Assembly: GCF_020520425.1 (NCBI RefSeq)
Contig: NC_079487.1
Coordinates: 129,416,385 to 129,480,384 of the forward strand
Direction: 5' to 3'
DNA: 64,000 nt
Source of the DNA: Spinacia oleracea
Taxonomy: Eukaryota; Streptophyta; Magnoliopsida; Caryophyllales; Amaranthaceae
Part shown: in pieces, positions 5,894 through 57,191 of the stretch
Numbering within the stretch: position 1 is the first letter of the stretch
Layout of the letters: every line of letters begins with the position of its first letter
Notes under the pieces: generated by a model
Database searches by the model: none
What the model was told of the DNA's origin: nothing
The model's input: the letters and a program-made list of their open reading frames with translations, nothing else
Made by a program: the position numbers and the translations under genes

Positions 5894-6053
5894 TTTTTTT
5901 TATAAACAAAACAATATCAATTAGTAATAATTAGATATTTTACCTTAAATAATTGTCCTCAAATTTTATGGGGCCTAATATTTAAACTTGGCATAGGGCC
6001 TTCAAATTGCCGGAGACATCCCTAAGACTAGCGAGCAGAAGATCTCCAGTATA

Positions 6054-7120
6054 ACTAGATTTTAGCCCGTGCGATGCACGGATTCTATTAAATTGTTATA
6101 TTTAAATAAAAATTCTATGTATATACCACTTTTATATATTAGATTAGATTAGTTTTTGATTTTGCATTGAATTTCATTTTAGATTTTTTTTTATTATGAA
6201 AGTGTTTGTTTTTGGACGAAATTGTATATGCGTAATATTAATAGATAATTAATAAAAAATATCTACGTGAAAGTTAATCATTTATTTACGTGGCACTTGA
6301 CTTTTTTATTCAAAATTAATTTTGAAATCTTATTTTTCATTGGCCGAAACCATTAGATTTTTCTATGTGACGCTCTAATATTGGGTTAATGTTTGATTTT
6401 AAATTGAATTGAAATTATTTTATTTTAGATTATTGTTTCATTTTGGATGAATTTTATTTTAGATTTATTTTTTTAATTATTAGAGTGTTTGATTTTAGAC
6501 GGAGTTGTATATATTAGTAATTAATTCATGAAAATATCTACGTGGCACCTAATTAATTATCTACGTGGAAATCAATTATTTTTTAATTATTAGAGTGTTT
6601 GATTTTCGATGGAGTTGTATATATTAGTAATTAATTAATTAAAATATCTATTTGGCACCTAATTAATTGTTTAAGTGTCACTTGATTTTTTAAATTCAAA
6701 AATAAATTAGAAATATTATTTTTCATTGGCCGAAACCATTAGTAATCCTAGGTGGCGCTCTAATATTTTAGAAAATATTCCTCCATTGGCCGAAGCCATT
6801 AGATTTTTCTACGTGACGCTCTAATATTGGATTAATATTTGATTTTAAATTGAATTTTATTTATTTTATTTTAGATTATTGTTTGATTTTGGATGAATTT
6901 TATTTTAGATTTATTTTTTTAATTATTAGAGTGTTTGATTTTAGATGGAGTTGTATAATATTAGTAATTAATTAATTAATTAAAATATCTATGTGACACC
7001 TAATTAATTATCTACGTGGCAATCGATTATTTTTTAATTATTAAAGTGTTTGATTTTCGAAGGAGTTGTATATATTAATAAATTAATTAATTAAAATATA
7101 TGCCTCCTTTATATATGTAT
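6054..7120 (-). mobile_element. Helitron (minus), first of a head-to-tail pair
   Basis: On the minus strand the 3' end reads CCGTGC-ATC-GCACGG hairpin, a short A/T-rich spacer and CTAGT, mapping to 6054-6077 on the plus strand. The flanking minus-strand base is T. The 5' end (TACATATATAAAGGAGGC on minus) abuts the next Helitron at 7120/7121. The interior is built from degenerate repeats of roughly 250-300 bp containing CATTGGCCGAAACCATTAG and TATCTACGTGGCA. No Rep/helicase is seen. Confidence 0.65.
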
Positions 7121-7877
7121 ACTAGATTTTACCCCGTGCGATGCACGGATTCTATTAAATTGTTATGTTTAAATAAAAATCCTATGTATATACCACTTTT
7201 ATATATTAGATTATATTAGTTTTTTATTTTGCATTGAATTTTATTTTAGATTTTTATTTTATTATGAGAGTGTTTGTTTTGGATGAAATTGTATATGCTT
7301 AATATTAATAATTAATTAATAAAAAATATCTACGTGACACTTAATCATTTTTTTACGTGGCACTCGACTTTTTTAATTCAAAATTAATTTTGAAATCTTA
7401 TTTTTCATTGGCCGAAACCATTATATTTTTCTACGTGGCGCTCTAATATTGGATTAATGTTTGATTTTAAATTGGATTTTATTTATTTTATTTTAGATTA
7501 TTGTTTGATTTTGGATGAATTTTATTATATATTTATTTTTTAATTATTAGACTGTTTGATTTTAGATGGAGTTGTATATATTAATAATTAATTAATTAAA
7601 ATATCTACGTGGCATCTAATTAATTATCCACGTGGCAATCGATTATTTTTTAATTATTATAGTGTTTGATTTTCGATGGAGTTGTATATATTAATAATTA
7701 ATTAATTAATTAAAATATCTATATGGCACCTAATTAATTATCTACGTGGCACTTGATTTTTTTAATTCAAAAAGAAATTAGAAATCTTATTTGTCATTGG
7801 CCGAAACCATTAGTAATCCTAGGTAGCGCTCTAATTTTTCAGCAAATATGCCTCCTTAGATGGAGTTGTATATATTA

Positions 7878-8135
7878 CTCCCTATGTTCCATAATGTACC
7901 TCATGTTTACTATTCATATGGTAAAAGTTTAAAAACTTTTACTGTAATTAATAGTATGATTAAGAATATAAATGTTAACTTGTGGGATATCAATGGATTC
8001 GTTTCAATATAAATTTTCTAAATATTAATTTTGTATAATTTTTACTAATACGAAATTAAAATTATTAATGGTCAAAGTAGTGCATTGAAGACAACGCATA
8101 ATGAAAAAGTGAAAAACATTATGGAACGGAGGGAG
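7878..8135. mobile_element. Stowaway-type MITE inside the Helitron
   Basis: Ends CTCCCTATGTTCCATAATG and CATTATGGAACGGAGGGAG are inverted repeats flanked by TA on both sides, as in Tc1/mariner-derived Stowaway MITEs. Length is 258 bp, non-coding. Confidence 0.85.
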
Positions 8136-9132
8136 TAGTAAATAATTAATTAAAATATCTACGTGACACCAATTAATTATCTACATGGCAATCGATTTTT
8201 TTAATTCAAAAATAAAGAAGAAATCTTATTTTTCATTGGCCGAAACCATTAGTAATCCTACGTGGCGCTATAATAATTTAGTAAATATGCCTATTGGATT
8301 AATGTTTGATTTTAAATTGAATTTTATTTATTTTATTTTAGATTAGTGGTTGATTTTGGATGAATTTTATTTTAGATTTATTTTTTAATTATTATAGTGT
8401 TTGATTTTAGATGGAGTTGTATATATTAGTAATTAATTAATTAAAATATCTACGTGGCATCTAATTAATTATCTACGTGGCAATCGATTTTTTTAATTCA
8501 AAAATAAATTAGAAATCTTATTTTTCATTGGCCGAAACCATTAGTAATCCTATGTGGCGGGTTAATTTAATTATTATTTTTATTTTATTATTGCAGTCCG
8601 GTTTTCTTGTTGGCTTGTTTGAAGCCCAGTATTATTTTATTATAAGGTTTGTATTTAGAAATAATCAAATTCAAATAATCCAGGATATAGATTCTTTTTT
8701 ATATACTCTGTAATCAACAACAATAAGTACTCCGGATAAATTTTTTCAATGCATGGTCAAGCTAGCATTTTTTTTTGACAAAGATCAAACTACCAATTTA
8801 TTTGTTCGAGAAATTTTTTATCGTCCTTTAATTTGTATAAATTTTTTTCCTACTTACGTTTGCAAAGATAAATATAAAGTTTATCACACCTAGCAAAAAT
8901 TTGATTCACAAGATTTGGTAAAAAATAATAGAATATTTTGTTACATTGAGTTGAGTTCTCGTGATTTAAAAGACTACTCCGTACTCATATAAGTTAAGCC
9001 TAGATGTTAAACAACACTAAAATTTGTTTAATAACTAAAATATTTACACATACTATATACTATACTACATAGTAAACGAAGAGTATGATAATTTCTTACG
9101 AATCTAAAGTCTGCTTATATGGAGAATCATGT

Positions 9133-34554: not shown

Positions 34555-36682
34555 TGTTAATATTAAATTCAATATGGCAATGAGTTTTAGTTATGTTATA
34601 TTACTAGATATTTATTTAGGAGATATATATTATGTTATTGTATTCCTATTTTACGAGTTGTATTTTAGGGATAGATTTGTTAGTATATTGGTTTCTCCTA
34701 AATTGTAATATTCTAGTAATATTGTGTTTCCTAATACTAGGGCTAGGGTTAGGAAGTTGGAGTATATAAATAGGGATTTATATACCATTATGATTGATAT
34801 GCTTGAGATCCTGAACTTGAGCATAGTTTGAGAGAAACACCTGTGAGGTTGATTGATTGTATTGTTGATAACGGTTTTGATTAATAATACAAGTTGGGAC
34901 GTGGGTATACCACGTTATTTATATTGTGTGTGTTTTGTCTATATTGTTATCTCGTACTATTCCTAACAAGTGGTATCAAGAGCTAAGGTTCGTGATGGAG
35001 AAATTTGGTGGAAGGTTCGAGATTCAATTGTTCAATGGAAGGAACAATTTTGCCTTATGGCAAAGCACGGTGAAAGATCTCCTAATCCAACAAGGGTTGT
35101 ATGGAACCCTTGAAGACAAGAAGCCTACCGAAATAGAAAAGACAAAGTGGGAAGACATGAAGTTACGTGCGGCATCGACAATCCGGTTGGCTCTTGCACC
35201 GGAAATTAAGTATGATGTTCTTGAGGAAGATAACCCTAAAAGTTTGTGGGACAAGTTGACAAAGACATATCAGTCCAAGTCTTTGGCCAACAAGTTATTT
35301 CTCAAGAAAGATTTGGTCGGACTCGAGATGGAAGAAGATGGAGATTTGAGAGATCATCTGAATCGTTTCAATGGCTTGATAAACCAACTTAATAATTTGG
35401 ATGAAAAATTAAAGGATGGGGACAAGCTATTCTTCTACTTGTGTCTCTACCAAAGAAGTATAATACTGTGATTACTTCTTTGTTGGTGGGGAAAACGAAG
35501 TTGGGTTTGGAAGAGACTATTGTTGTTCTTCTATAGAACGAAAAATTGATGAAGCAAGGATCGGATGACTCATCGGATGGAGGAGCATTCGTGGTAGATG
35601 CACGTGACAAGAGAAAGAAATTTGGTAAGAAACATAACCTTAATATTAAGTGTTTATATTGTGGAGAGTTGGGTCATATACAAACTATGTGTCCCAAAGC
35701 AAAAGAAGACTTGAAGGAGTTGAAGAAAACTCGCGAGAAGGGACGTGTTTCGTATGCGGAAGGAGATGATGATGATGTTGGTGATGCTCTTTTGGTTCAA
35801 GAAGATAAGGGGCCAAAAGACGGTTGGGTGCTTGACTCGGGAAGTTCTCATCACATATGTGCTAGGAGGGAATGGTTCTCATCCTATGAAGAGTGTGAAG
35901 GGAAGATGGTTACTTTGCCGGATGGTAAGAAGGTAAAAGTTGACGGCATTGGTGAGGTTGTGGTAAAACTTTGCAATGGTCGTGTTCGAAAGTTAGCAGA
36001 TTGAGCTACGTACCAAAGTTAAAACGGAATCTAATTTCATTGGGTAGATTAGATGGTTTGGGTTACACTGTTATGGTGAAAAACAGTAGTTTGGAGGTCA
36101 CTAAAAGGGGTGTGGTGATACTCAAAGGTTGGAAGAATAAAAGAAATCTATTTGTGTTAGATGGAGATGTTCTTGTTCGAGGGAAGGCATTGTCGGATTG
36201 ACGACTGTGTTTCAATAGTGACCGTTAAATCGGTTGTGGCCATATTGGGTTGAAGGGGAGGAATTGTTAATATTAAACCCAATATGGCAATGAGTTTCAG
36301 TTATGGTATATTACTAGATATTTATTTAGGAGATATATATTATGTTATTGTATTCCTATTTTACGAGTTGTATTTTAGGGATAGATTTGTTAGTATATTG
36401 GTTTCTCCTAAATTGTAATATTCTAGTAATATTGTGTTTCCTAATACTAGGGCTAGGGTTAGGAAATTGGGGTATATAAATAGGGATTAATATACCATTA
36501 TGATTGATATGCTTGAGATCCTGAGCTTGAGCATAGTTTGAGAGAAACGTACACCTGTGAGGTTGATTGATTGTATTGTTAATACCGGTTTTGATTAATA
36601 ATACAAGTTGGGACGTGGGTATACCACGTTATTTATATTGTGTGTGATTTGTCTAGATTGTTATCTCGTACTATTCCTAACA
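34555..36682 (+). mobile_element. Short Copia-type LTR retrotransposon, non-autonomous
   Basis: Two LTRs of about 415 bp (34555-34968 and 36265-36682) begin TG and end CA, flanked by the 5-bp duplication GTATA (34550-34554, 36683-36687). TGGTATCAAGAGC just after the first LTR is an initiator-Met tRNA primer site, and AAGGGGAGGAAT before the second is the polypurine tract. The 1.3-kb interior carries gag-type text with a CCHC knuckle and the start of a protease region (LDSGSSHHIC). I see no integrase, reverse transcriptase or RNase H, so it is a broken, non-autonomous fossil. The LTRs differ at about a dozen sites (about 3%), which suggests roughly a million years at commonly used plant rates. 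Confidence 0.9.
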
Positions 36683-37553: not shown

Positions 37554-38035
37554 TACTCCGTATGTAACTAGTAACTACCTTAGCTAGAGGCATAGAGCTG
37601 AGTTGGGTAGGTCGATCGAGATGGATTTATCACCATTGGATTCGGAATGCGTTAAAGTATGTGTACGTATTACGTACTATAAAATGGGGTCTCCTGCATG
37701 TTAAAAACATGTAAAGTTTATCTAATTTTTATAAGGTTAATTACAAACTACAATTGTTTACAAGGTAGTTTGTCATGCATGAAAATCAAAATTTTATAAG
37801 GTAATATTTCACAAATTCAGCAATAAGTTTTGTTCTCATTTATTCCAAATAAGTTTCTACACTTTTATTTAGAAATATTAAAGAGTTTTAGTAATGTCTC
37901 TAACTAATAAGGGGTTGTAGTTTCATGAAAAAATAAACTCGATGATAAAATTAATTGTATGACGTTGATATCTATCATAAATTCGTAACCACTAACCACT
38001 AACCACCTTAGAGTTAGAGTAGAGGGGAGGAAGTA
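37554..38035. other. Spacer, with part of the knottin upstream region duplicated
   Basis: The segment about 37625-37690 (TTTATCACCA, then GGAATGCGTTAAAGTATGT and AATGGGGTC) recurs at about 38376-38465, just upstream of the first peptide gene. No gene is seen here. Confidence 0.5.
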
Positions 38036-38203
38036 TTTGCGCATATCAGACATGTATGGGCAAATACATATCAGAATAAAAGACAAAATAGGAAAAAGGA
38101 CAAAAAAGAAATTAAATGGTACTTTTTTTTTACAGAATGATACTTCCTTTTTTGTCTTTTAGCTGATATGTATGTTGCCACACATATCAGATATGCGAAA
38201 AAA
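38036..38203. mobile_element. MITE with TTTGCGCATATCAGA-type inverted ends
   Basis: The left end TTTGCGCATATCAGACATG is the near reverse complement of the right end CATATCAGATATGCGAAA. The interior has GGTACTTTTTTTT and AGACAAAA. A related copy is at 56234-56475. Confidence 0.65.
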
Positions 38204-38362
38204 CAAGAATGGACCCTAACTGAACCAGCACCTAGCACAGGTGAACCAGCCCAGCTACGCAGGTCATCGCTTGAGCCAAGCCCAAGCATTTCGCAGTTGA
38301 TGGGGCTCGAACTTGTGACCTCCAAGTCACAAGGTGAGTTCCCCACCAACTCCACCAACTTA
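38204..38362 (-). mobile_element. tRNA-derived SINE upstream of the first peptide gene
   Basis: The minus strand starts GTTGGTGGAGTTGGTGGGG, with a B box AAGTTCGAGCCCC about 50 bases on, then GGTTCACCTGTGCTAGGTGC. This resembles SINE families of Amaranthaceae; the family assignment is from memory. It ends about 210 bp before the TATA box of the next gene. Confidence 0.6.
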
Positions 38363-38570: not shown

Positions 38571-38578
38571 TATAAAAA
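38571..38578 (+). promoter_or_regulatory. TATA box of peptide gene 1
   Basis: TATAAAAA lies 82 bp before the ATG, which predicts transcription from about 38603. Confidence 0.7.
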
Positions 38579-38659: not shown

Positions 38660-39001
38660 ATGATGAAAAACTGGGGTTTAGTCGTAGTTGTTATAATAGG
38701 CATTATGGCAATGGTTGGCAGTAGCAGTGCAGGTGAAATGGAGCAATATGAGGTGGCATCGGTTCTTTCAAACATCATGCTTGAGGGGGCGGGTGCAACT
38801 GGTGCGCTGAGTTGCACTGGTTCTGGACAAAGTTGTGCGAGTCATAGCGAGTGTTGTCCACACACCGCATGTCGTTATTTATATAACAAGTGTGAATGGT
38901 GTCCAGCAGCTGGTGATTCTTGTGGTCGTTCTTGGCACTGTTGTCCAGGATTCACCTGCTATTATGATAGTTTCTGGACTGTTACTGGTACATGCTCCTA
39001 A
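38660..39001 (+). CDS. Secreted 12-cysteine double-knottin peptide, copy 1
   Basis: An intronless frame of 113 residues. Residues 1-24 are a signal peptide (VVVVIIGIMAMVG core, SSSAG end). A pro-segment rich in Glu/Leu/Ala follows to about residue 48. The C-terminal part has 12 cysteines in two matching blocks: C-x6-C-x5-CC-x4-C-x6-C, two residues, then C-x6-C-x5-CC-x4-C-x11-C. Each block has the inhibitor-cystine-knot spacing of knottin antimicrobial and protease-inhibitor peptides. Spinach and Mirabilis knottins I recall have one block. It is likely secreted; target and activity cannot be read from sequence. The 324 bp at 38765-39088 match copy 2 at 48201-48524 exactly. A frame at 38835-39044 is its shadow. 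Confidence 0.85.
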   Translation: MMKNWGLVVVVIIGIMAMVGSSSAGEMEQYEVASVLSNIMLEGAGATGALSCTGSGQSCASHSECCPHTACRYLYNKCEWCPAAGDSCGRSWHCCPGFTCYYDSFWTVTGTCS

Positions 39002-39088
39002 CTATTTAAACAATTGCCGCCCCGCCCGTCGTCGTTACTGGTAAATGCTAATTAATGCATTGCGTAACCCGTTACGTTATGTCACCTT

Positions 39089-39485
39089 ATTTTCAATTTA
39101 TGTATGCATGTGTACTGTCTATTGTTTACCTAAATCCGGACTACTACTATGTATGTTAAATAAACCTCGTCACTAGCTCTGATCCTCATTATTGATAGAT
39201 CTTGAGGTCGGGGTTTGTATTACGAGTAGCCGAGTAGTAGTCATCGGATCGAGTCGAATCGTCTACTACTGCCACATACAGATCAGTACGTACTTCTGTT
39301 TGGAGTAGTCTTGTATTGTACCTTTCAATTAATCATGTACGTACGTTATTGTGTACTTCCATCGTCCCTTAATTAAGTTGCAATATATGCACTTTATTAT
39401 GTTATAATATACGCATGTCCATCGATCGTACGTCTTAAAAACTACTGCTCCATACTCCTCAATTTTATGTTGTCAATTAATGCCC
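39089..39485 (+). repeat. Diverged 3' part of the peptide-gene duplication
   Basis: Aligns to about 48525-48935, sharing CCTAAATCCGGACTACTAC and GGATCGAGTCGAATCGTC. At least seven substitutions and several indels occur in the first 260 bp, unlike the identical tract before it. Confidence 0.8.
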
Positions 39486-40631
39486 ACTTCTAGAGTTAGT
39501 AGTATGGACTACACGCTAATACGCTACCATGTACTACCTCTGTTTCACAATATAGTCCTTGCAAATTCTCTCTCTAAAACCCTGAGAAAGCTTTCCTATC
39601 TAGTAACGCCGGGGCTATAATCACGTCATAACAATGGGACCCTGTGTAATTTTTCAAAATGGGACCGTTAATTAATTACTTTAATAAAAAAAATCCAAAA
39701 TTTTGAACAAAAAACAATCCCTTGTAAAATTAATTGTCTGACTAGCTATATGATCTGATCGTCGATCGACTCGATTGATCTCTAGGATCTCTAAGCATGA
39801 TCCATTCATCTACCTCTATAACAATAAATCAAAATTTCAAACACTCAAACAGTTAATAAACCTTCATAATCAATACAGTATTATGCAATCATACAATTTG
39901 CAAATCAAAATCGAATAATTTGATTAATTTTGGCCAAATTTAATTGAAATTTAATGAGACTATCAAAACTTACCAGAAATTAAAGGATGGTGCTGATTTG
40001 AATGATTTCGTACTTCGTAGCAGTACGTGCATATGTTGGGAAACTAGGCTGTGAAATAACAGTTTAATGATCAATTTCAACTTGATTTATCCGTTGAGAT
40101 CTGATAAGGATGAAAGTAAGTTAAAGAATATGAACGAGATTCGGGGAGAAATTGATGAATGTTTGTTTCCCAGTCAATCACTCTTTCCCGTAAATGAAAG
40201 CATGGTAAACTCCGGAAAAAAAATTAAACGAGATTTAATTTGGGGAAGAAGGATGAAATTAAATTTGAACAAGAACTAGGTAAGAATGAATGAAATTTAA
40301 TTGAAGGATTTGATTGGGGAACAATGAACGACAACTTTGTAAACATCCAAAAACCATAACTAAAGTCTCCGAAAATCCATAACTGAACCGGAAAAAAAAC
40401 ATTTAAAAAAGTTCAAAGTATAGTTGTTTGTTTCCGAAAATCAAGGAGCAAAACGCAATTTCAATTTAAGGGGATTCAAACTCAGGACCTTTGGTTTATA
40501 ACACATTACCTTAACCAATGTTCCAACTTAGTTGTCATGTGCATTTAGGTGAATATTTACATTATATTCGAAATTAAAATTTGAGGGCGTTGTTCCGTCG
40601 CTCACCTCGCACCGTCCCAGAACCGGCCCTG
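39486..40631. other. Spacer with SINE-like remnant, no gene
   Basis: Minus-strand GAGTTTGAATCCCC near 40472 is a B-box-like word of a probable SINE (about 40465-40545). The frame at 40067-40279 has no recognised domain. Confidence 0.4.
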
Positions 40632-43600
40632 CTATCTAGGTTTCTAGAGATCTTTTCTTTCTCCTTCTTCTTCTCCTCTTTTGATCTCTCTTCTCTCTTC
40701 TCTATTCTCTCTTTACCCCTCTCATCATATCATGTATGATTCCCCAACTCGTATGAGTATCACTATCCCGCTCTCTTCCAATGATATTCCCCCTAGCTTT
40801 GGAGGATTCAGTCTTGCGGTAGTGGATAATTCAAGGATTACAGGTCTTTTTATGAAGCTCAAATTCAAGTATGGGTTTCTCAGCTCTGAAGACGAATGGT
40901 CCAATCTCAGTTGGTAAAGTGGGTTACTCGAAAGATCTCTTTGTATTCTTCTGTAATAATATTGAAGATAAAGATAATTTTTTCTCCATTGGTACGACTT
41001 CGTTCATGGGGGCGCTGGTTATATTCAAAGGTTGGCATATGGGAGCTTCCATTCAAAATCTAGATTTCTCATAAGCTTATTTTTGGGGTCAACATTGAAA
41101 GAAGCCAAACTACGCATAACCAATTGCATGTTGCTCATAGAACCCTCGAATGAATATGTAGAGTCACTAAGTTCGATGACCAGTAAAAAAAAGATGGTCC
41201 AAAACTATTCATCGGGGATAATATGGTGATTCCGATAGAAAAAGTTGTCGTCTCGAGCTTCTACTATGAATTTAGACACGACAACTTCAAATGGATTGAT
41301 TTTAGATATGAGGGAATCTTTAACCTCTTCCAAAACTGTGGTAAAGTTGGCCACCGAAAATCTAATTGAAAATCAACTCAGGTAGCATGAAAACGAGAAA
41401 TTCACCACCGCCTTAGGTCAATTGGTGGATCGAAATACGACTTCATGGTTGAAGATCATGCACCTCCTCTATACTCCAAAAGAATCATGGGTCTTGAGGA
41501 TGTGGAAAATTTCAGAACGCAACTCAATTTGAGGGTATTCCCTGAGATACCTCATCATCAGATTCCGGTGGCAGTAATGATGGTGGAGGACATGATCACT
41601 CAGAGAAATCGCCGCGAAATCCTAGTCTCGTGGGAGAAATGGTAACGACGATGGACCATCATCGCAACACTAGAAACGGAAACGTGATGAGCCCGGTAAA
41701 CCCATAATGGAGGGAGGCCACTCTGATAGTTTGATCGAGTGCTTTCAGGCCTGAGGTAAACCCGGACCAGTCTCCGTGGAAAAAAGTTAAAACCCAATTG
41801 ATGTATGCAGGTAAGGGCAAGCGACGATCTCTGGGTAAAGATGGCAGAGGAAGATGAAACAGTTGGCTCGGGAAAGAAGGTGAAGATCAATGTTCTCAAA
41901 TTAACCCAGTGGCGCGGTTGGCCTGCTCAGTCTTTGGTTATAAAATAAAGTGTATTAGTTGGAATTGTAGAGGGGTAAGTAACTCTGAGTCCCCAATTTC
42001 CCCTTTTCTTTCTAGTTTTCGGCAAAATGTAATGTTGATTTTACTTTTATCTCGGAATCTAAATGTAAGGTAGCTAGTCTCGAAGCCCCCTTTGCTCGAA
42101 TGGGCTTCGTTGGTAACACAAGGTGGGACGCACTTGGTAGTACATGCAATCTTTTCTTGGGCTGGTCTAGTCGGGTAGATGTTAGTGTGATTTCAGTTGA
42201 TGCAAATGTAATTTTCTGTAAGGTTAATTATGAGCTTAACGTTGACTTTTACTTCGTATTTGTTTATGGCTGCCCGTACATCTACGGTCGTAACTTGGTT
42301 TAGGATAGGATTAGTTCTCTGATGAAAAATAATAGTTGGAAAACGATGCTCATAGGTGACAAAAATCAGCTAGAAGACAATTCACAAAATTGGGTGGAAG
42401 AAGTAATGTCCAAGGGTCTTCTGATTTATCTCTTGAAAAAGCGCATGTGGGATTTCTGAATTACCCCATCATGGGGTTTCATACACTTGGACCAACAATA
42501 GATCTGGTACAAACTCCATTTTTGAGAGGCTAGACAGGGCTTATGCGTGTTCGGAGTGGAGGGTGTTATTCCCTAACGCTATGGTGTGCAATCTCCCTAT
42601 TTTCTTATCTGATCATATCCCGATTATCCTCGACTTTTCCCACTTATAGGTAAAAAAGAAAAAACCCTACAAACTCGAAGCTTGGTGTCTGCTTAGAAAA
42701 GAAATTGAGGAAATTACCAACTCCAATGGTCGAAGTTCATCCACGGGTCAAAGCTTTTCTCGATCCAAAGAAGATTAGAAGGTGTTGTTGGGGAGGCTAG
42801 GAAGTGGTGCCTGGACTTCATGAGGGATTCAGGTTTTTCATGGAATAAGTTTGAAGAAGATCTCACTCTCTTGCAGTCAAATTTGTAAGACCATAACTCG
42901 ATAGTTAAAGAGGTTGAGCATCGTAATATAATTGACTAACACTCACTTGCAGGAACTCCTAGCCCCCTTTTCCAACATGGAGATTAAGAAGACGGCGTTT
43001 TGCTCTAAGCCCCTTAAGTCTCCAGGTTCGGACGGAGTACCACCAATATTTTTCCAAAGGAACTAGCAAACTGTAAGTCATGATGTCTATGAAGGAGTGC
43101 ACTCGTTCTTTACGACTGGCCGCATGGTGAGGGAAACCAAAAAGACTTATGTGGCTCTTAAATTATCCCTAAGGAGCGACGCCCCTCATTGTTTGGATAT
43201 TTTCTTCCAATTAGCTTATGTAACTCCATCTACAAGATTATCTCGAAGTGCTTGGTTAACAAGATCAAGTATATTCTTTCGGACCTTGTTGGTGATACTC
43301 AGAATGCGTTTGTACCTGGAAGAATGATGGTTGACAATTGTTTTATGGAACATGAAATTATCAACCATGTCAAGAAGCGGAAATTGGTGCAAATTTGAAG
43401 GAATTTTAAAGGTCGATCTTAGTAAAGCCTATGACCGAGTTGATTGGGCTTTCATGATCAAAATTTTAAAGCATATGGGCTTCCCAATGTATCACCACTG
43501 TTTCTTACTCTATCCTTGTAAATGGCGAGCTAGACGACAATCAATCCGATAAGGGGGATTCATTAGGGGGACCCTCTATCCCCGTACCTCTTTATTCTCC

Positions 43601-44517
43601 TTATGGAAGCCCTTTCTCGAGGAGTCGGGCGTATAGAAAGTGAAAGAATCATCCATGTATTCGAATTGGTAAGTATACCCTAGCGGTTTCTCAATTATTT
43701 TCCACAGATGATGCGTTGTTCAGTTTTGAAGCTACTACGGACTCTTGTAGAGCGGTTCGCACGTGTAAGATGGCCTTTGTCGGGTCTCTGGGGAGATGAT
43801 TAATTTTGGGAAATTCTTTATCCTCTTTAGCCCTAATACTCCTTTGAGGTTTATGAGGATGATGAAGAGTCCATTGGAGGTAGTAAATAAAGATTATATG
43901 GGCGATTATTTGGGTTGCCCTATGGATGTGGATGGGCGTTCTTCTGCAAAATTCAATGTGTTAGTGGATAAAGTGAATAACAAGATATCTTCGTGGAAAT
44001 TTTCTAACCTCAGTGCAGTTGGGAAGATTGTTCTTATTAATGGGGTCCTTATAGCCTTGGATTCTCATATTCTCTCTATTTATATGTGTCTGGCCCTAGT
44101 TTTGAGAAAGCTCACCTTCACTCTCACAAAAATATGGTGGCCTAAAGGGAGCTCTACCCATTCTAGTCCTATATATATAATTAAGGAGTTGATCTAAACT
44201 TGTAGAGATGATAGGGGTCAGCCGTCAGGGGACCTTGACGTGGCCACATTAAACAAATCTCTTCTGGCTCGACAATGCTGGAGAATGCATGATCAACCTT
44301 ATCTACTGGTTAGCAGAATTTCAGAGGAAAATATGGAGCAGATCCCATTAGTTAATGTTATTCGAATCCCCCCCTCCCCCCAAAGCTTTCTCATGGGAGG
44401 CCTGTAGCTTATTGCGAGCTACTGGTGCAATCAAAGAAGAAATCCGCTTTAGAGTTGGTAATGGTCGCAACATTAAAATTCAATAGGATCGTTGGGCTAG
44501 CAATATATGAACGGTAG
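40632..44517 (+). mobile_element. Decayed L1-type LINE, 3' end missing
   Basis: It follows plant L1 order. A CT-rich leader (about 40632-40720) is followed by ORF1 text with a worn CCHC knuckle near 41335 (FQNCGKVGHRKSN, first and last Cys lost, the last to a stop). The endonuclease starts CISWNCRG near 41950, with FISESK and SYTWTNN...ERLDRAYA...SDHIPI near 42030-42640. Reverse transcriptase blocks are KSPGSDG (43017), QNAFVPGRM (43300), KVDLSKAYDRVDW (43410) and FSTDDAL (43702), then LGCPMD and FRVGNGRNIKI (44450). Frames shift several times and stops are frequent, so it is dead. It stops near 44517, where an LTR-like block begins. Confidence 0.85.
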
Positions 44518-44525
44518 AGGGCTTT

Positions 44526-45248
44526 TTTGTTATGTTATGATACATATAAAGCATATATATTTCATGCGGAAAAACCATAAAGCCACGAATCCAAATTAAT
44601 AGCCACATAACAATTAACATAATTTAGGATACATACTTATGTAGCGTGCCCTCCCTAGCTGCTTCCGAACCGAACAAGAACAAGTTTAGGACTCCAAATG
44701 TCGTCCCTCCGTAGATAGTCCATAGCACGTTCGGATCTGCCTTTTAATTAACTAGAATTGCACCTATAAGGTTTTAAGTTATTCGAATAATTTGTGGCAA
44801 ATTAATGTTAGTTTAATCCTTAAAACTATGTGAATACTTGAATTGGAGTGATTTTAAATTGTGAATGCCATCACATATTTATATGGTTGGAACAATGGAA
44901 TTAGAAGTCTACTAGGTTTCAGTTAATCTAATCCTATTAGAATTAGACATTAATTAAAACTAATAAGTTATTGTTTAGCTAAACAACTAACTCTAGTAAC
45001 TTTATTAAATTTAATCTTTAATCTAATCCTAATTGCTTAACGATTCAACGCATGCACGTACTCAACGCACACACGCACACACAACACTCAAGGGTCGTTG
45101 GGCGCGCGCGCGCGCGGAGCAGGCTCGGCCCGTAGCTGCTCGCAGCCCATTTGCTTGGGCACGCCTGTTGCCATGCGCGCTGGGCCTAGCCTTGCGTGCT
45201 GCTTGGCTGGGCCTACGTGCCTTGGCTGCTGCTGCGTTCCCTTGTGCG
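44526..45248 (-). mobile_element. Possible Copia-type LTR fragment, with GC-rich part
   Basis: TGTTATG at the left and ATACATATAAAGCATATATA with TTTCATGCGGAAA resemble plant Copia LTR ends. The right part (45095-45245) is GC-rich with a (GC)n tract. It interrupts the LINE and is cut off by the next LTR-like block. Assignment is by texture only. Confidence 0.4.
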
Positions 45249-46682
45249 TGATGAATCATATTTATATAGGGTATTTTTGGCTCATTTAGGTTGCATTTCT
45301 AGGCATTTTTCTCATATTAGTTGCATTTAAAGTCATAATTGCATAAGTCGTCGTTATCGTACTCTATTACGCTTCGTTTGTGTTTTCTTTGATATTTCAG
45401 GTGATTTTACAATCATTTGGATGTTTCCAGAGATATGGAGGTGGGTCGAATGACTATCGGATGGTTCGTATTGAAAACGTCGTGTTTGATTGGAAAATGG
45501 AGTTTTCGGAAATGATTTGCGGGAATTCCGGTTCACTTAGCTTAATTTATTCGGTCATCGAGGCAATTTGTTATTTTGGATGACACGGGGCTAGTTTCTG
45601 ATGCTCGACATAAAATCTCGGTAGTGTGGGAAGCATCGTCACAACAACGCACCTGATCGTGCAATGTGCCCACAGCGAAGCGCGTTATGCCCACATCTAG
45701 CGCGTTGTGGCCGCACCCAGTCCGCAGCACCCCGTCGCCTCGCTAAAACAACGTCTGTCATGCTCACAGCGATGTGCTGCGCCCACATCGCACACTTTCT
45801 TCTTCGATGCGCCCACAGCCCGCGCGCTGTGCCCACATGCAGCAAGATTGTTGTGCCCACATCGCACTCACACCTTGCATAAGCGAACTGCTGGCCTGCT
45901 CACAGCGCAAGGCTGCGCGCTCAGCGCGCCCAAGCCAATAAACCTACCATATTGCATACGTCTCTCTCGCCGTCGGTTTCTCATCACGTCATCACTCCAT
46001 CGACCAATCATTGACGACTTCTATTTTTATTTATTTATTTTTATTTCAGAAAAGAGGAAGCTTATAAATATTGAAGGGAATTATTTTCCTAGGGCTCTCA
46101 TGTTATTATTTCTTTTTAGAATTCTCAATGCACGATTAGTTTTATTTTTCTCTCTTTTTCTTTCATGAACCCTACCATTAATGGTTTCATTATTCATTGA
46201 TATTTCTAGTTGATTAGGTTTTATCTTTAATCTTTGCGATCTGATCAATTGTTTGATTAAATCTTGCTAATAGGGTTTCGAATCGAAAGATCGACTTTTA
46301 GAGGCTTACCTACAACTAGCAATTCTGATTATGTTAGCGACCGTACTGCATATGTTGAATCGAGAGTGTTAAGACCCGACCATAGGATTAACTCGTGCTT
46401 TAGATACTTTGAATACTTGAATTGTTGATGATGTTTTAATTGATTTTGAACTATGAACATGGTGAACCATTGCCCTAGATGTTTTAGTTTATTTTCCTAT
46501 TTATTTTAGTTTAAACATTCAATATAATCCTAAATTTCGTGACATTGTTAGTTTCGCCATACCTATATTTAAATAGTCATCTCTCTGTGGATTCGACCCT
46601 GCTTACCCTACTACATTGTTAAGAGGTTTCGTTAGGATTTTACATTTCACGCTTGTTGTTTCACTGTTGATTGTTTATATTC
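45249..46682 (+). mobile_element. Probable Gypsy (Athila-like) LTR, solo
   Basis: It starts TGATGAATCATATTTATATA with GGTTGCATTTCTAGGCATTT, and the 3' part has CTCTGTGGATTCGACCC, text I associate with Athila-type LTRs. No primer site or coding region follows, so a solo or fragmentary LTR is likely. The right bound (TTATATTCA) is approximate and no duplication was seen. Confidence 0.45.
45655..45935. repeat. GC-rich TGCCCACA-type degenerate repeats
   Basis: Words (T/C)GCCCACA(T/G) recur about every 25-40 bp with GCGCG text between. It lies inside the LTR-like block and makes spurious open frames on both strands. Confidence 0.7.
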
Positions 46683-48016
46683 AGGTGTATTAACCACAAC
46701 AGATATTTGCATAAGATCTGGAACGAAGGAACCATGGGACGGAGATGCTTGACATTGTTCTTGATTGATACTTACCATCAATGGGTTTCAATATTATTTT
46801 ACTTTAGACAATGCTTTTTGGGAGACCAATTATGCTCTCTTTTACTCAAATTCGACTCTGTTTACAAAAAATCAAGCAAAATCTCATGGAAATTTGATTG
46901 GCTCTGGCTGCAATGCCTTCTGCATGAGCCCAATCTGTTTTTTTTTGCTATGAACTGAGATAAAACCAGTAGCAGTTGCTGGAGATGGAGGGCGCCCAAC
47001 ATACTACCAGTTCGTGTTCATGCCCTTGCAAAATGCAATCCTACATTAAAATAATTAATGCAAATTAGAAAAGCCCCAATTTGTGTTCATCGAAACTCGA
47101 AAAACCCTAAATCTTGTGAGGCCAAATTAGAAAAATATGGGGGGGGGGGGGAAATTGAGAGGGAAAAACATCATACTTGATTCATATTCACGTTAATAGA
47201 ATTGGATAGCAGCCAATTGAAGTGTTAAAGCTTGTTGATATGGCAGCAATTCAAGCAATGGGGATGGAGTTTTCCTCTGGTTTCGCGCAGAGGAGAGGGA
47301 AGATGAAATTTTGGTTTTTTTTTTTAATTTTTTTTTAATAAAAGGGAAGTCAGGAAATTGGAGGGGAAATGGAAAAAAAAAATATTTTTATTATTTTTTT
47401 AGTTTTTTAATAGTCACGTGCCTGGCACATGGCCAAGTCAATGCCGGAAAAGGGTTTTAATTGGCATTTTCCGAGCAAAGGTCCTAGTCAACCCAAAAAA
47501 AAGTTGATTAAGATCTCAATTTGCCACTTTGCTTATATAAGGTCCCTTTTCACAAAGTTGACCTTATATAAGGTCCTTTCTAACAAAAATTCCTATGTTT
47601 TAAGGCTCTAATCATTTAGTGTTTTTTTTGCTACTTCCCAAAACATTGATGGATCTTATTCCAATTTGGGTTATGAAGTTTTAGGTAAATTAAAAAAAAT
47701 ATATAATATAGACAATATAATTGAAGTGTCCATTATTTGTTCTTAATTAATCATACAGCAGATCGAAGTGTATCTTAAATAGTGAAACCTTCTCCCCCAC
47801 ATACCAAAAAATATCATGAATCACGTTGGCTAAACTCAATCATATATTAATAATAATGTAATCTTACTGTGGATACAGTTTCAAACTTTCAACTGATAAT
47901 GTAATAATGTAAATACTCAATCATACATTAATAATGTAATGCTACTGTGGTTACAGTTTCAACTTTCAAGTGATAATAGAGTACATATACTGTAATACTG
48001 ATATACATTGGTTTTC
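46683..48016. other. Spacer, no gene supported
   Basis: Low-complexity text, a G run near 47140, and an AT-rich stretch with TTATATAAGGTCC twice (47535, 47565). Frames at 46671-46958 and 47429-47611 show no domain. Confidence 0.45.
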
Positions 48017-48023
48017 TATAAAT
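48017..48023 (+). promoter_or_regulatory. TATA box of peptide gene 2
   Basis: TATAAAT lies 79 bp before the ATG. The surrounding promoter shows no similarity to that of copy 1. Confidence 0.55.
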
Positions 48024-48095
48024 TGAGAGGAACGAATAAGTAAAAGTAAACACACATATAATCATATATACATTTAAGTATATAAAAATAATAAA

Positions 48096-48437
48096 ATGGA
48101 AGAGATAAAGAAATGTGGTATTCTCCTTCTTATAATTAGCATGATGATCATGGTAGGCAGTAGTGGAGCTGCCGAACAAGACATCGATGGTCAGCAGCTG
48201 CTTTCAAACATCATGCTTGAGGGGGCGGGTGCAACTGGTGCGCTGAGTTGCACTGGTTCTGGACAAAGTTGTGCGAGTCATAGCGAGTGTTGTCCACACA
48301 CCGCATGTCGTTATTTATATAACAAGTGTGAATGGTGTCCAGCAGCTGGTGATTCTTGTGGTCGTTCTTGGCACTGTTGTCCAGGATTCACCTGCTATTA
48401 TGATAGTTTCTGGACTGTTACTGGTACATGCTCCTAA
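48096..48437 (+). CDS. Secreted 12-cysteine double-knottin peptide, copy 2
   Basis: An intronless frame of 113 residues, the same length as copy 1. The signal peptide differs (CGILLLIISMMIMVGSSGAA) and the pro-segment is only partly alike. From LSNIMLEGAGATGALSC onward the protein is identical, with the same 12 cysteines in two knottin-spaced blocks. At DNA level identity starts at CTTTCAAACATC (48201) and runs 324 bp through the stop into the 3' UTR (to 48524) with no difference that I can see; beyond that the copies diverge. A frame at 48271-48480 is its shadow. Likely secreted; activity unknown. Confidence 0.85.
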   Translation: MEEIKKCGILLLIISMMIMVGSSGAAEQDIDGQQLLSNIMLEGAGATGALSCTGSGQSCASHSECCPHTACRYLYNKCEWCPAAGDSCGRSWHCCPGFTCYYDSFWTVTGTCS

Positions 48438-48524
48438 CTATTTAAACAATTGCCGCCCCGCCCGTCGTCGTTACTGGTAAATGCTAATTAATGCATTGCG
48501 TAACCCGTTACGTTATGTCACCTT

Positions 48525-48935
48525 TTTTTTATTTTTTTTATTTTATGTATGTGTACTGTCTATTGTTCACCTAAATCCGGACTACTACTATGTATGTTAA
48601 ATAAACCTCGTCACTAGCTCTGATCCTCATTATTGATCGATCTTGAGGCCGGGGTTTGTATTACGAGTAGCTGAGTACTAGTCATCGGATCGAGTCGAAT
48701 CGTCTACTACTGCCACATACAGATCAGTACTTCTGTTTGGAGCTGAGTAGGCTCATTGTATTGTACCTTTCAATTAATCATGTATGTTATTGTGTGCTTC
48801 CATCCCTTAATTAAGTTGCAATGCAGTTTATTATACGAAGTATTATAAATTATAATATGCAGGTCCATCGTTCGTACGTGTTAAAAACTACTGCTGGATA
48901 CAAAGTACTCTTTCATTTCATGTTATCAAATTAAG
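48525..48935 (+). repeat. Diverged 3' part of the duplication, copy 2
   Basis: Partner of 39089-39485. Similarity fades near 48935, after AAAAACTACTGCT. Confidence 0.8.
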
Positions 48936-55478: not shown

Positions 55479-55933
55479 GGCAAATTTGTCAAATACAACC
55501 TAATAAAGTCCTCTATTTGCCAATTACAACCTCAAATTTCTAATTTTGTCAATTACAACCTTAAACTTGTACATTTATTTTAAATTACAACCCGAAACCA
55601 TTTTCCGGCAAAAATCACCGGAAGATGATGTCTAACGTTATTAAAATAAATTATGAAGTACATAATATTTGTAAAAAAATTTATTATTTCGACTATTTTA
55701 TTTATTTTTGTTTTAATTCTTATTTATCGATTTAATTTTTATATAGAAAATATGTAAGTATTTTTTTTAATAACATTATGACATCATCTTCTGATGATTT
55801 TTGCCGGAAAATAATTTCGGGTTGTAATTTAAAATGGATGTATAAGTTTAAGGTTGTAATTGGCAAAAATAGAAATTTAAGGTTGTAATTGACAAATATA
55901 GATATTTAATAGGTTGTATTTGGCAAATTTTTC
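55479..55933. mobile_element. MULE-type MITE with 9-bp duplication
   Basis: GGCAAATTTGTCAAATACAAC and its near reverse complement at the right end form inverted repeats of more than 150 bp, including TTTTCCGGCAAAAATCACC. A perfect 9-bp direct repeat TTTTATTTA flanks it (55470-55478, 55934-55942). The element is 455 bp and non-coding. Confidence 0.88.
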
Positions 55934-56233
55934 TTTTATTTACATGTAAAAAAAAATGAGGTGGCACTAGCTCTTATTTGTAACAGTTAGCTTTTATTTC
56001 AGAATTTTATCCTACACAGTCTAATTAAAAGCCTTCTATTTCTCACCTAAGAGCTACTCCGTACCTCTTATTTTTCTCTTTTATTAAGAGCCCATTAAGA
56101 GACTCCCCTATTTTATGCTCTTGTTAGATGTAAACAGAGTAAATTACCAAGTTACGACTTCAATTATTTAATGACATTTAAATAGAAAGATACCCTGCTT
56201 GCGTAATGTAACCTCATATTGCGGAGGTTGTTT

Positions 56234-56475
56234 TTTCGGATATCAGATATGTGTGGCAACACACATATCAGCTAAAAGACAAATAGCTAAAAGACAAAAA
56301 AGGAAGTACCATTTATGTTAAAAAAGTACCATTCTGTAAAAAAAAGTACCATTCAGTTAAAAAAAGTACCATTTTTGTTTTAAAAAGTACCATTTAATTT
56401 TTTTTTTGTCATTTTTCTTATTTTGTCTTTTACTATAATATGCATTTGCCCACACATATTTAATATCCGAAAATA
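56234..56475. mobile_element. MITE related to the 38.0 kb copy
   Basis: TTTTTCGGATATCAGATATG at the left mirrors ACATATTTAATATCCGAAAAT at the right. The interior has five AAGTACCATT units and AGACAAA, matching the element at 38036-38203. Confidence 0.65.
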
Positions 56476-57191
56476 CTTCCTCCATATTGCGAAGGCTGTT
56501 TCTTGGAACAACCGCAAATACGTAACTACTCCTATTAATGCGTGGAATTCGGCCGAGAAAAATACCATTAATTTGTGGAATCAGAAGCTTAGACTTTTCT
56601 ATGCATTCAAGATTGAACCTTCTCTTTTGACTTTGTCATTGTCATGTTTGTCGCTTTGTGCGGTAATACCTCCAAATATAATGTGTACGGTGTATTAAGA
56701 CTATTACAGTATTATCCTTCCATTTTAAATTTGTGTTCAGATTGCAAATTCATGCAATGAGTAAGAAGAGTGTAAGACTTACTTGTACCTAGATTTTCAT
56801 ACACCAGAGAACACACCCTCTTCCATTTGCAAAAGCGCGAGTATAAGAATATAGAATCTACGGGAATGAAATATGAGAAAGGGTAAGAATATAGAATGGA
56901 CATCTCAAAGGAACGTATTAAAATAATTATTGGGTTAAAACTTAAAAGCTTTTTAACCAAATCATTTCTCCAAAATTCTAACATTTGACATAATTGCCAA
57001 ACAACAAAAGATTACAACATATATTTTGGTTAAAAGATGATTTATGGTGTAGTTGAAGCCAAAAGCCTATTACACAAATTTCATCAAGTAAATACATAAG
57101 AAAATAACACATAATTTCCTCACAAAGTAAAGTAATGCAAAAGAAATTTAACCCTTAGGTTTTTTTTTTCCGTTGGCTGGAAAAATATAAT
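56476..57191. other. Spacer and 3' flank of the NRT3 gene
   Basis: No gene is supported. Frames at 56423-56698 and 56712-56984 have no domain. Confidence 0.45.

What the first reader, a model, noticed from the sequence alone, without database searches (positions are those of the whole stretch)
38765..48524. 324-bp identical tract shared by two knottin genes 9.4 kb apart: likely gene conversion
38765-39088 and 48201-48524 read identical over 324 bp, covering the whole mature peptide, stop and early 3' UTR. Just downstream the copies differ by at least seven substitutions and several indels in about 260 bp; at that rate about nine substitutions would be expected in the tract. Upstream, promoters are unrelated and signal peptides only loosely alike. 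Conversion or very recent exchange limited to the mature-peptide module fits best; selection would not hold synonymous and UTR sites.
Basis: partly seen in the sequence, partly recalled or inferred. Interest (0 to 1): 0.75.

Follow-up and report, generated by a model that had tools for sequence, protein, structure and literature searches.

The report
Knottin gene overwritten by its neighbour
Two neighbouring plant genes for a small secreted peptide, predicted to form two knots, have different switches and export tags but identical peptide-coding halves, most likely because one gene's second half was copied over the other's; this is a clear example of a process already known.

Summary
38765-39088 and 48201-48524 match exactly over 324 bp, with a mismatch on either side. 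They are the 3' parts of two single-exon genes, A (38660-39001) and B (48096-48437). Each encodes a 113-aa secreted protein with two tandem cystine-knot-like motifs. The main evidence is discordance within the genes. The signal/propeptide halves differ at 42 of 99 sites, the tract at 0 of 324, and divergence then climbs 3'-ward (1/80, 4/96, 8/93, 14/59) until homology ends near 39450. Seven older control pairs of the family differ by 28-43% in the mature part. Two CACTA transposons carry captured 5' fragments of a B-like gene, joining B's signal peptide to the start of the tract. Against them A is the odd one at 33 of 103 signal sites but at 0 of 71 tract sites. The best reading is interlocus gene conversion, most simply B to A, probably repeated, with a left edge where homology had decayed. 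Two corrections: the homogenised block runs past the mature-peptide module, and its 3' edge is blurred by a variable poly-T stretch. The mechanism is known. The uncharacterised double/triple-knot family around it is the better lead.

The parts
38660..39001 (+). Gene A CDS, single exon, 113 aa: signal peptide + propeptide ending in LSNIMLEG + two ICK-like motifs (inferred recipient)
   Evidence: ORF list; 12 invariant Cys in 15 aligned members; Cys spacing
48096..48437 (+). Gene B CDS, single exon, 113 aa, same mature protein with a different signal peptide (inferred donor)
38765..39088 (+). Identical tract in gene A: 78 codons + stop + 87 bp of 3' UTR
48201..48524 (+). Identical tract in gene B
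38660..38764 (+). A signal peptide + propeptide region, 42/99 aligned sites different from B: not converted
48096..48200 (+). B signal peptide + propeptide region; relatives captured in two CACTA elements (C4:123143390-123143749, C3:69851243-69851433)
39089..39449 (+). A 3' flank still homologous to B; divergence rises 1/80, 4/96, 8/93, 14/59 after a variable poly-T stretch at 39089-39110; AATAAA at 39159-39164
   Evidence: sequence read
48525..48895 (+). B 3' flank homologous to A; AATAAA at 48600-48605
   Evidence: sequence read
38571..38577 (+). TATA-like box of gene A (TATAAAA), consistent with an unspliced short 5' UTR
   Evidence: read; inference
48017..48023 (+). TATA-like box of gene B (TATAAAT)
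   Evidence: read; inference
47915..48095 (+). Part of the B promoter region whose relative lies in the C4 CACTA element (match to query 116-401, 73% identity over promoter and signal part together)

Best explanation
A and B are an old tandem pair of double-knot peptide genes. The 3' half of one (mature peptide, stop, 3' UTR and some flank) has been copied over the corresponding part of the other by interlocus gene conversion. Most simply B was donor and A recipient, so A kept its own promoter and signal peptide but now makes B's mature peptide. Shown: the exact identity, the 5'/3' discordance, the 3' divergence gradient, and A's tract start grouping with B and two B-like transposon-captured fragments. 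Inferred: that the copying was non-reciprocal repair from the neighbour 9.4 kb away; that it stopped on the left where homology had decayed to about 58%; that it happened more than once (to explain the gradient); and that the outcome is one peptide under two different controls.
For: Exact 324-bp identity beside a 5' coding half differing at 42/99 sites (Fisher P 3e-26 against 0/237 in the mature CDS). Seven control pairs of the same family that I chose (not independent, and older) have mature parts 28-43% and 3' flanks 47-58% different; none resembles A/B. CACTA-captured fragments on C4 and C3 hold B-like promoter/signal plus the tract start. B differs from them at 15/105 and 13/103 signal sites and 4/71 and 7/71 tract sites. 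A differs at 44/105 and 46/103 signal sites but at the same 4/71 and 7/71 in the tract. A-alone sites: 33/103 vs 0/71 (counts, Fisher P 3e-9). Change-point test on 38765-39390 without the poly-T: split after 39126, 0 of 5000 shuffles. The search with A's own 5' region found no other gene as its source.
Against: On flank and UTR sites alone the contrast between tract and near flank is modest (perm P 0.026; Fisher 0.055 for UTR + synonymous and 0.13 for UTR sites against the nearest 176 sites). In 4 of the 7 control pairs the signal part is also more diverged than the mature part (for example 51% vs 35%), in 1 it is equal, and in 2 it is clearly less diverged (17% vs 41% and 28%); so a faster 5' half is not in itself unusual, only the size of the contrast is. 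The CACTA fragments cover only the first 71 bp of the tract, so direction beyond that rests on continuity. A two-step history (A to B before the capture, then a further exchange) would fit too. There is one assembly only; no second accession or related species could be searched.
Confidence: 0.84

Rival explanations
1. 5' swap: A and B are a recent duplicate pair, and A's promoter and signal peptide were replaced from another family member.
For: It would also give a diverged 5' half with an identical 3' half. The near 3' flank (1/80, 4/96) could be the true duplication age.
Against: The search with A's 5' region found itself and only a 30-bp match in a TGTATAATGTATAATG-like simple stretch at C1:80413891, listed as two overlapping rows. 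By protein score A's signal part is closest to B's (53 against at most 49 for 13 others), though that margin is small. The 3' homology fades as a gradient and does not end at a sharp duplication edge.
Confidence: 0.07
2. Assembly or polishing artefact: the two tracts truly differ but were made identical by consensus or short-read polishing.
For: The assembly that fits by size was polished with Illumina paired-end reads (library insert ~300 bp) by Pilon (PMC8668906 passages), and a 324-bp near-identical tract is ambiguous for short reads.
Against: The same passages report 118x PacBio CLR reads from fragments averaging 20 kb and Arrow correction before Pilon; reads of that length could span a whole gene (inference). 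The copies sit in different sequence, and the 3' flanks keep differences from the first base after the tract onward. Even if a few differences were lost, the 5'/3' discordance would stand.
Confidence: 0.05
3. Very recent partial duplication or insertion of B's 3' module next to an unrelated promoter and signal sequence (module transposition, no homologous pairing).
For: The block is about 690 bp and has no detected homologous flank beyond it. I did not search the junctions systematically for insertion marks.
Against: The junction falls in frame at the homologous codon between two homologous signal/propeptide regions. The 3' edge is a gradient.
Confidence: 0.03
4. Purifying selection alone keeps the two mature regions identical.
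For: Both copies keep intact ORFs and all 12 cysteines.
Against: About 50 synonymous and 87 UTR sites are unchanged, while 7 of 7 control pairs have mature parts 28-43% different and 3' flanks 47-58% different.
Confidence: 0.01

Closest known systems
Interlocus (ectopic) gene conversion between tandem duplicates
   Same: Short homology-bounded tract, identity including silent and UTR sites, discordant flanks, gradient at one edge.
   Different: Nothing fundamental. The left edge lies near the signal/mature junction, which leaves promoter and export tag unconverted.
Recombination among plant defensin-like (DEFL) genes (Arabidopsis; PMC5731061, passages seen)
   Same: Secreted cysteine-rich peptide genes with Geneconv tracks in signal or mature parts; few events.
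   Different: A different peptide family. The paper says it did not separate conversion from reciprocal exchange; here an outgroup fragment gives a likely direction.
Double-knot animal venom peptides: DkTx (tau-theraphotoxin-Hs1a) and Xt3a (PDB matches; Xt3a's source, a remipede crustacean, is recalled); bivalent spider toxins in PMC13172734 (passages)
   Same: Two CC-type six-cysteine motifs in tandem; the plant family profile matches Xt3a (E 1.7e-6) and DkTx (E 3e-4) over both motifs. In the spider Hc1a group the whole bivalent mature part also lies in one exon.
   Different: Plant genes, single exon, a linker of two residues between the knots, and three-knot members. HMMER's bias term is large (19.7 bits beside a score of 31.3 for Xt3a), so cysteine content drives part of the match; common ancestry is not shown.
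Multi-core plant knottin precursors (TIPTOP1-3 of Momordica, 5 to 8 cores; table passage of PMC11253845)
   Same: A plant secreted precursor with several knottin units in tandem.
   Different: Those cores are released as separate peptides (recalled); here only two residues separate the knots, so the protein probably stays bivalent (inference). No sequence comparison with them was made.
CACTA transposons with captured gene fragments (Chenopodium; PMC8978399, passages seen)
   Same: CACTA termini, 3-bp target-site duplications, captured host gene fragment.
   Different: The captured piece here is a knottin promoter + signal + start of the mature region, and it serves as an outgroup for the conversion.

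Membership tests
Interlocus gene conversion | Tract identity beyond expectation, including silent and untranslated sites | tested here: met
   0/324, with ~50 synonymous + 87 UTR sites unchanged; 7 of 7 control pairs at 28-43% in the mature part. Against the near 3' flank alone the silent-site test is borderline (Fisher 0.055; perm P 0.026)
Interlocus gene conversion | Phylogenetic discordance between tract and adjacent sequence, judged with an outgroup | tested here: met
   A-alone sites 33/103 in signal/propeptide vs 0/71 in tract, outgroups = two CACTA-captured fragments
Interlocus gene conversion | Non-reciprocal transfer (donor unchanged, no exchange of flanks) | tested here: inconclusive
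   Flanks on both sides remain locus-specific, and B keeps ancestral linkage to the tract start; the unconverted A allele was not seen
Interlocus gene conversion | Unconverted ancestral state in a relative or allele | not testable with these tools
   No other plant genome is held; single-protein queries of viral contigs and genome contigs gave no relative
Knottin / inhibitor cystine knot | Six-cysteine order C-C-CC-C-C per domain | tested here: met
   Spacing 6,5,0,4,6 then linker of 2, then 6,5,0,4,11; all 12 Cys invariant in the 15 members aligned
Knottin / inhibitor cystine knot | Disulfides I-IV, II-V, III-VI and knotted fold | not tested
Sequence profile matches double-knot structures; Pfam Toxin_12 and Dickkopf_N are below cut-off for A and B
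CACTA transposon (C4 and C3 elements) | CACTA termini in inverted orientation | tested here: met
   CACTACTACAAAAAA at the left; the right end reads TAGTAGTG, i.e. CACTACTA inverted (read by eye)
CACTA transposon (C4 and C3 elements) | 3-bp target-site duplication | tested here: met
   CTA/CTA at C4 and AGA/AGA at C3 (read by eye)
CACTA transposon (C4 and C3 elements) | Own transposase | not tested
   No stop-to-stop frame of 120 aa or more lies wholly inside either element, so both look non-autonomous; no profile search was done

The most novel reading that the evidence does not exclude
The genome holds an uncharacterised plant family of covalently linked double- and triple-knot secreted peptides (29 places pooled from four protein searches, fragments included). 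In it, homology-limited conversion works as a cassette switch: the same bivalent mature peptide is placed behind different promoters and signal peptides, while unconverted members diversify their mature parts. It would be a plant counterpart, by convergence, of bivalent animal venom knottins.
Probability: 0.25. Interest if true: 0.6.

Novelty: new member of a known kind. Interest (0 to 1): 0.4.

Why it matters
It is an unusually clean, small case. One exact tract, two promoters, an old unconverted 5' half and an independent outgroup in transposons make both the fact and the likely direction of conversion arguable from a single assembly. If it holds in other accessions, A and B are a natural promoter-swap experiment for one defence-like peptide. 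The surrounding family of double- and triple-knot proteins, whose two window members fall below the Pfam cut-offs, would deserve a proper survey across Caryophyllales.

Tried and rejected
Selection alone was rejected: silent and UTR sites are unchanged, and control pairs diverge. A longer shared segmental duplication was rejected: no homology beyond about 39450/48895 in the window self-comparison, and the flanks hit different repeats. A third copy of the module was sought and not found. The near-identical triplet at C1:11857/11988/12015 was checked as a possible second conversion case. Over the 1.8 kb fetched of each, the copies differ by 1 to 7 substitutions, spread over flanks and gene, so they look like whole-gene duplicates; they encode three-knot proteins. 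Relatives in viral and prokaryote contigs: none by a single-protein query. The first-stage suggestion to compare orthologues could not be done; no plant collection is held. Fold prediction was not obtained. A bacterial promoter scan upstream of A, and one sequence read of a stretch that bore on nothing, were of no use. The family alignment holds 15 of the 29 pooled places. Among the places fetched I left out one with stops (L028), one frame without a clear start (L030), one whose second knot is not seen (L035) and the CACTA fragment (L032). The row L020:8967-9311 starts before its first ATG. The places found later were not added. My first minus-strand coordinates for family members were wrong and were corrected. 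A Fisher test used a wrongly typed count (29 instead of 33) and was redone.

Full report
WHAT IS THERE. The window is C1:129416385-129480384 of an assembly of 894,210,420 bases in 242 contigs. The size, and the six large chromosomes C1-C6 met in the searches, fit the spinach Monoe-Viroflay genome (~894.3 Mb, six pseudomolecules; passages of PMC8668906; the paper gives 307 contigs). The species is my inference; no tool named it. The finding's two stretches, 38765-39088 and 48201-48524, are identical in 324 of 324 bases and differ at the next base on both sides. They belong to two intact ORFs, A (38660-39001) and B (48096-48437), each 113 codons. Both have TATA-like boxes about 75-90 bp before the ATG (read), so an unspliced short 5' UTR is likely (inference).

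THE PROTEINS. Each has a signal peptide, a propeptide ending in LSNIMLEG, and two tandem six-cysteine motifs with spacing 6,5,0,4,6 and 6,5,0,4,11, separated by two residues. In 15 aligned members of the genome's family all 12 cysteines are invariant. Pfam gives only sub-threshold matches for A and B (Dickkopf_N, Toxin_12). Over the 15 members these two profiles recur in 8 and 9 at E up to 0.1. A profile of the family matches solved double-knot peptides over both motifs (Xt3a E 1.7e-6, DkTx E 3e-4), with a large composition-bias term. That supports the reading 'two knots' but does not show descent. Pooling the protein searches gives 29 places by my count, including fragments and two places with stops inside (C3:35224824 and the CACTA fragment at C4:123143389). 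Three near-identical genes at C1:11.86-12.02 Mb encode three knots (spacing of one of them).

DIVERGENCE ALONG THE PAIR (gap columns left out). Signal + propeptide 42/99; tract CDS 0/237; tract UTR 0/87; poly-T stretch 39089-39110 6/22 plus an indel; 39111-39190 1/80; 39191-39290 4/96; 39291-39390 8/93; 39391-39449 14/59; then no detected homology. So the identity is flanked on the left by an abrupt drop and on the right by a gradient. Because the stretch just after 39088 is a slippage-prone poly-T and the next 80 bp carry one change, the end of the 324-bp run is not necessarily a recombination edge. A change-point test without the poly-T puts the split after 39126 (0 of 5000 shuffles). With only UTR and flank sites it falls after 39196, P 0.026; for 38765-39300 P is 0.017. 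Against the nearest 176 downstream sites the silent-site contrast is weak (Fisher P 0.055 for UTR + synonymous sites, 0.13 for UTR alone).

CONTROLS. Seven other paralogue pairs from the same family, chosen by me and sharing members, were measured in the same way: mature part 28-43% different, next 200 bp 47-58% different. All are much older than the A/B tract. Their signal parts differ by 17-52%: clearly less than the mature part in 2 pairs (C1:129122/129132, 26/150 vs 96/237, Fisher P 1e-6; C3:1115/C6:1487), equal in 1, and more in 4. So a 5' half that diverges somewhat faster is not unusual here. A 5' half at 40% beside a mature part at 0% and a 3' flank at 4% is seen in A/B alone. The unconserved 3' flanks of the controls speak against selection holding the UTR.

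DIRECTION. B's promoter/signal region and the start of the tract recur at C4:123143390-123143749 and C3:69851243-69851433. Both lie inside DNA elements with CACTA termini and 3-bp target-site duplications (CTA and AGA). A 601-bp subterminal stretch of the C4 element has 50 match rows over the genome, whereas the knottin fragment was found only in these two: captured gene pieces. They end 71 bp into the tract. B differs from them at 15/105 and 13/103 signal sites; A at 44/105 and 46/103. In the tract start both A and B differ by exactly the same 4/71 and 7/71. Sites where A alone is odd: 33/103 before the tract, 0/71 inside. Thus the tract start in A belongs to the B lineage while A's 5' half does not. 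B to A is the simplest direction. A two-step history with an early A to B transfer before capture cannot be excluded.

MECHANISM. The best reading is interlocus gene conversion between tandem genes 9.4 kb apart, repeated or with staggered right ends, and bounded on the left where the paralogues have lost homology. Unequal crossing-over would carry B's downstream flank along; A's downstream sequence shows no match to B's. From 0 changes the 95% upper bound on tract divergence is 0.9% over all 324 sites, or 2.2% over the ~137 synonymous and UTR sites. I do not convert this to years, since no rate was measured here. The consequence, inferred, is one mature peptide behind two different promoters and export tags.

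ARTEFACT. The assembly that fits was built from 118x PacBio CLR reads of fragments averaging 20 kb, corrected by Arrow and then by Pilon with Illumina paired-end reads (PMC8668906 passages). Homogenisation by polishing is conceivable but would not create the 5'/3' discordance. It cannot be excluded from one assembly.

NOVELTY. Conversion and recombination among secreted cysteine-rich peptide genes are known (PMC5731061 passages). CACTA elements with captured gene fragments are known in Chenopodium (PMC8978399 passages). Plant precursors with several knottin cores are known too (TIPTOP, table passage of PMC11253845). My ten paper searches gave no listing that I recognised as a plant double-knot family of this kind. 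They cover only open PMC text, several lists were cut (for example 10 shown of 201 and of 309), and I saw titles and abstract starts plus passages of five papers, so this is weak evidence of absence. I rate the finding as a new member of a known kind, with the family as the better lead.

Noticed in passing
C4:123143390-123143749 and C3:69851243-69851433 (loci L043/L044, L046): Two CACTA-type elements without long frames of their own carry a captured fragment of a B-like knottin gene (promoter in the C4 copy, signal, propeptide, start of mature part).
   Followed up: partly
C1:11857648, 11988179, 12015031 (L060-L062): Three nearly identical genes encode secreted proteins with three tandem six-cysteine motifs (18 Cys in the one counted); a more distant relative lies at C1:11652169.
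   Followed up: partly
C1:129122349-129137787 (L019, L020): Three further family members lie in a cluster about 300 kb upstream of the window's pair.
   Followed up: partly
38033-38204 and 56228-56483: MITE-like inverted repeat about 450 bp upstream of gene A, with a reverse-oriented relative near the right end of the window.
   Followed up: no
34555-36682: Two 96%-identical direct repeats (414 and 418 bp) around a copia-type gag frame (PF14223): a short LTR element.
   Followed up: no
38981-38996 and 39034-39049 (also in B): 16-bp near-repeat GTTACTGGTA[C/A]ATGCT at the end of the CDS and again in the 3' UTR, 53 bp apart.
   Followed up: no
55482-55930: Large imperfect palindrome of about 450 bp (80% self-complementary).
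   Followed up: no
6049-8559: AT-rich nested tandem and dispersed repeats sharing ~110-bp units.
   Followed up: no
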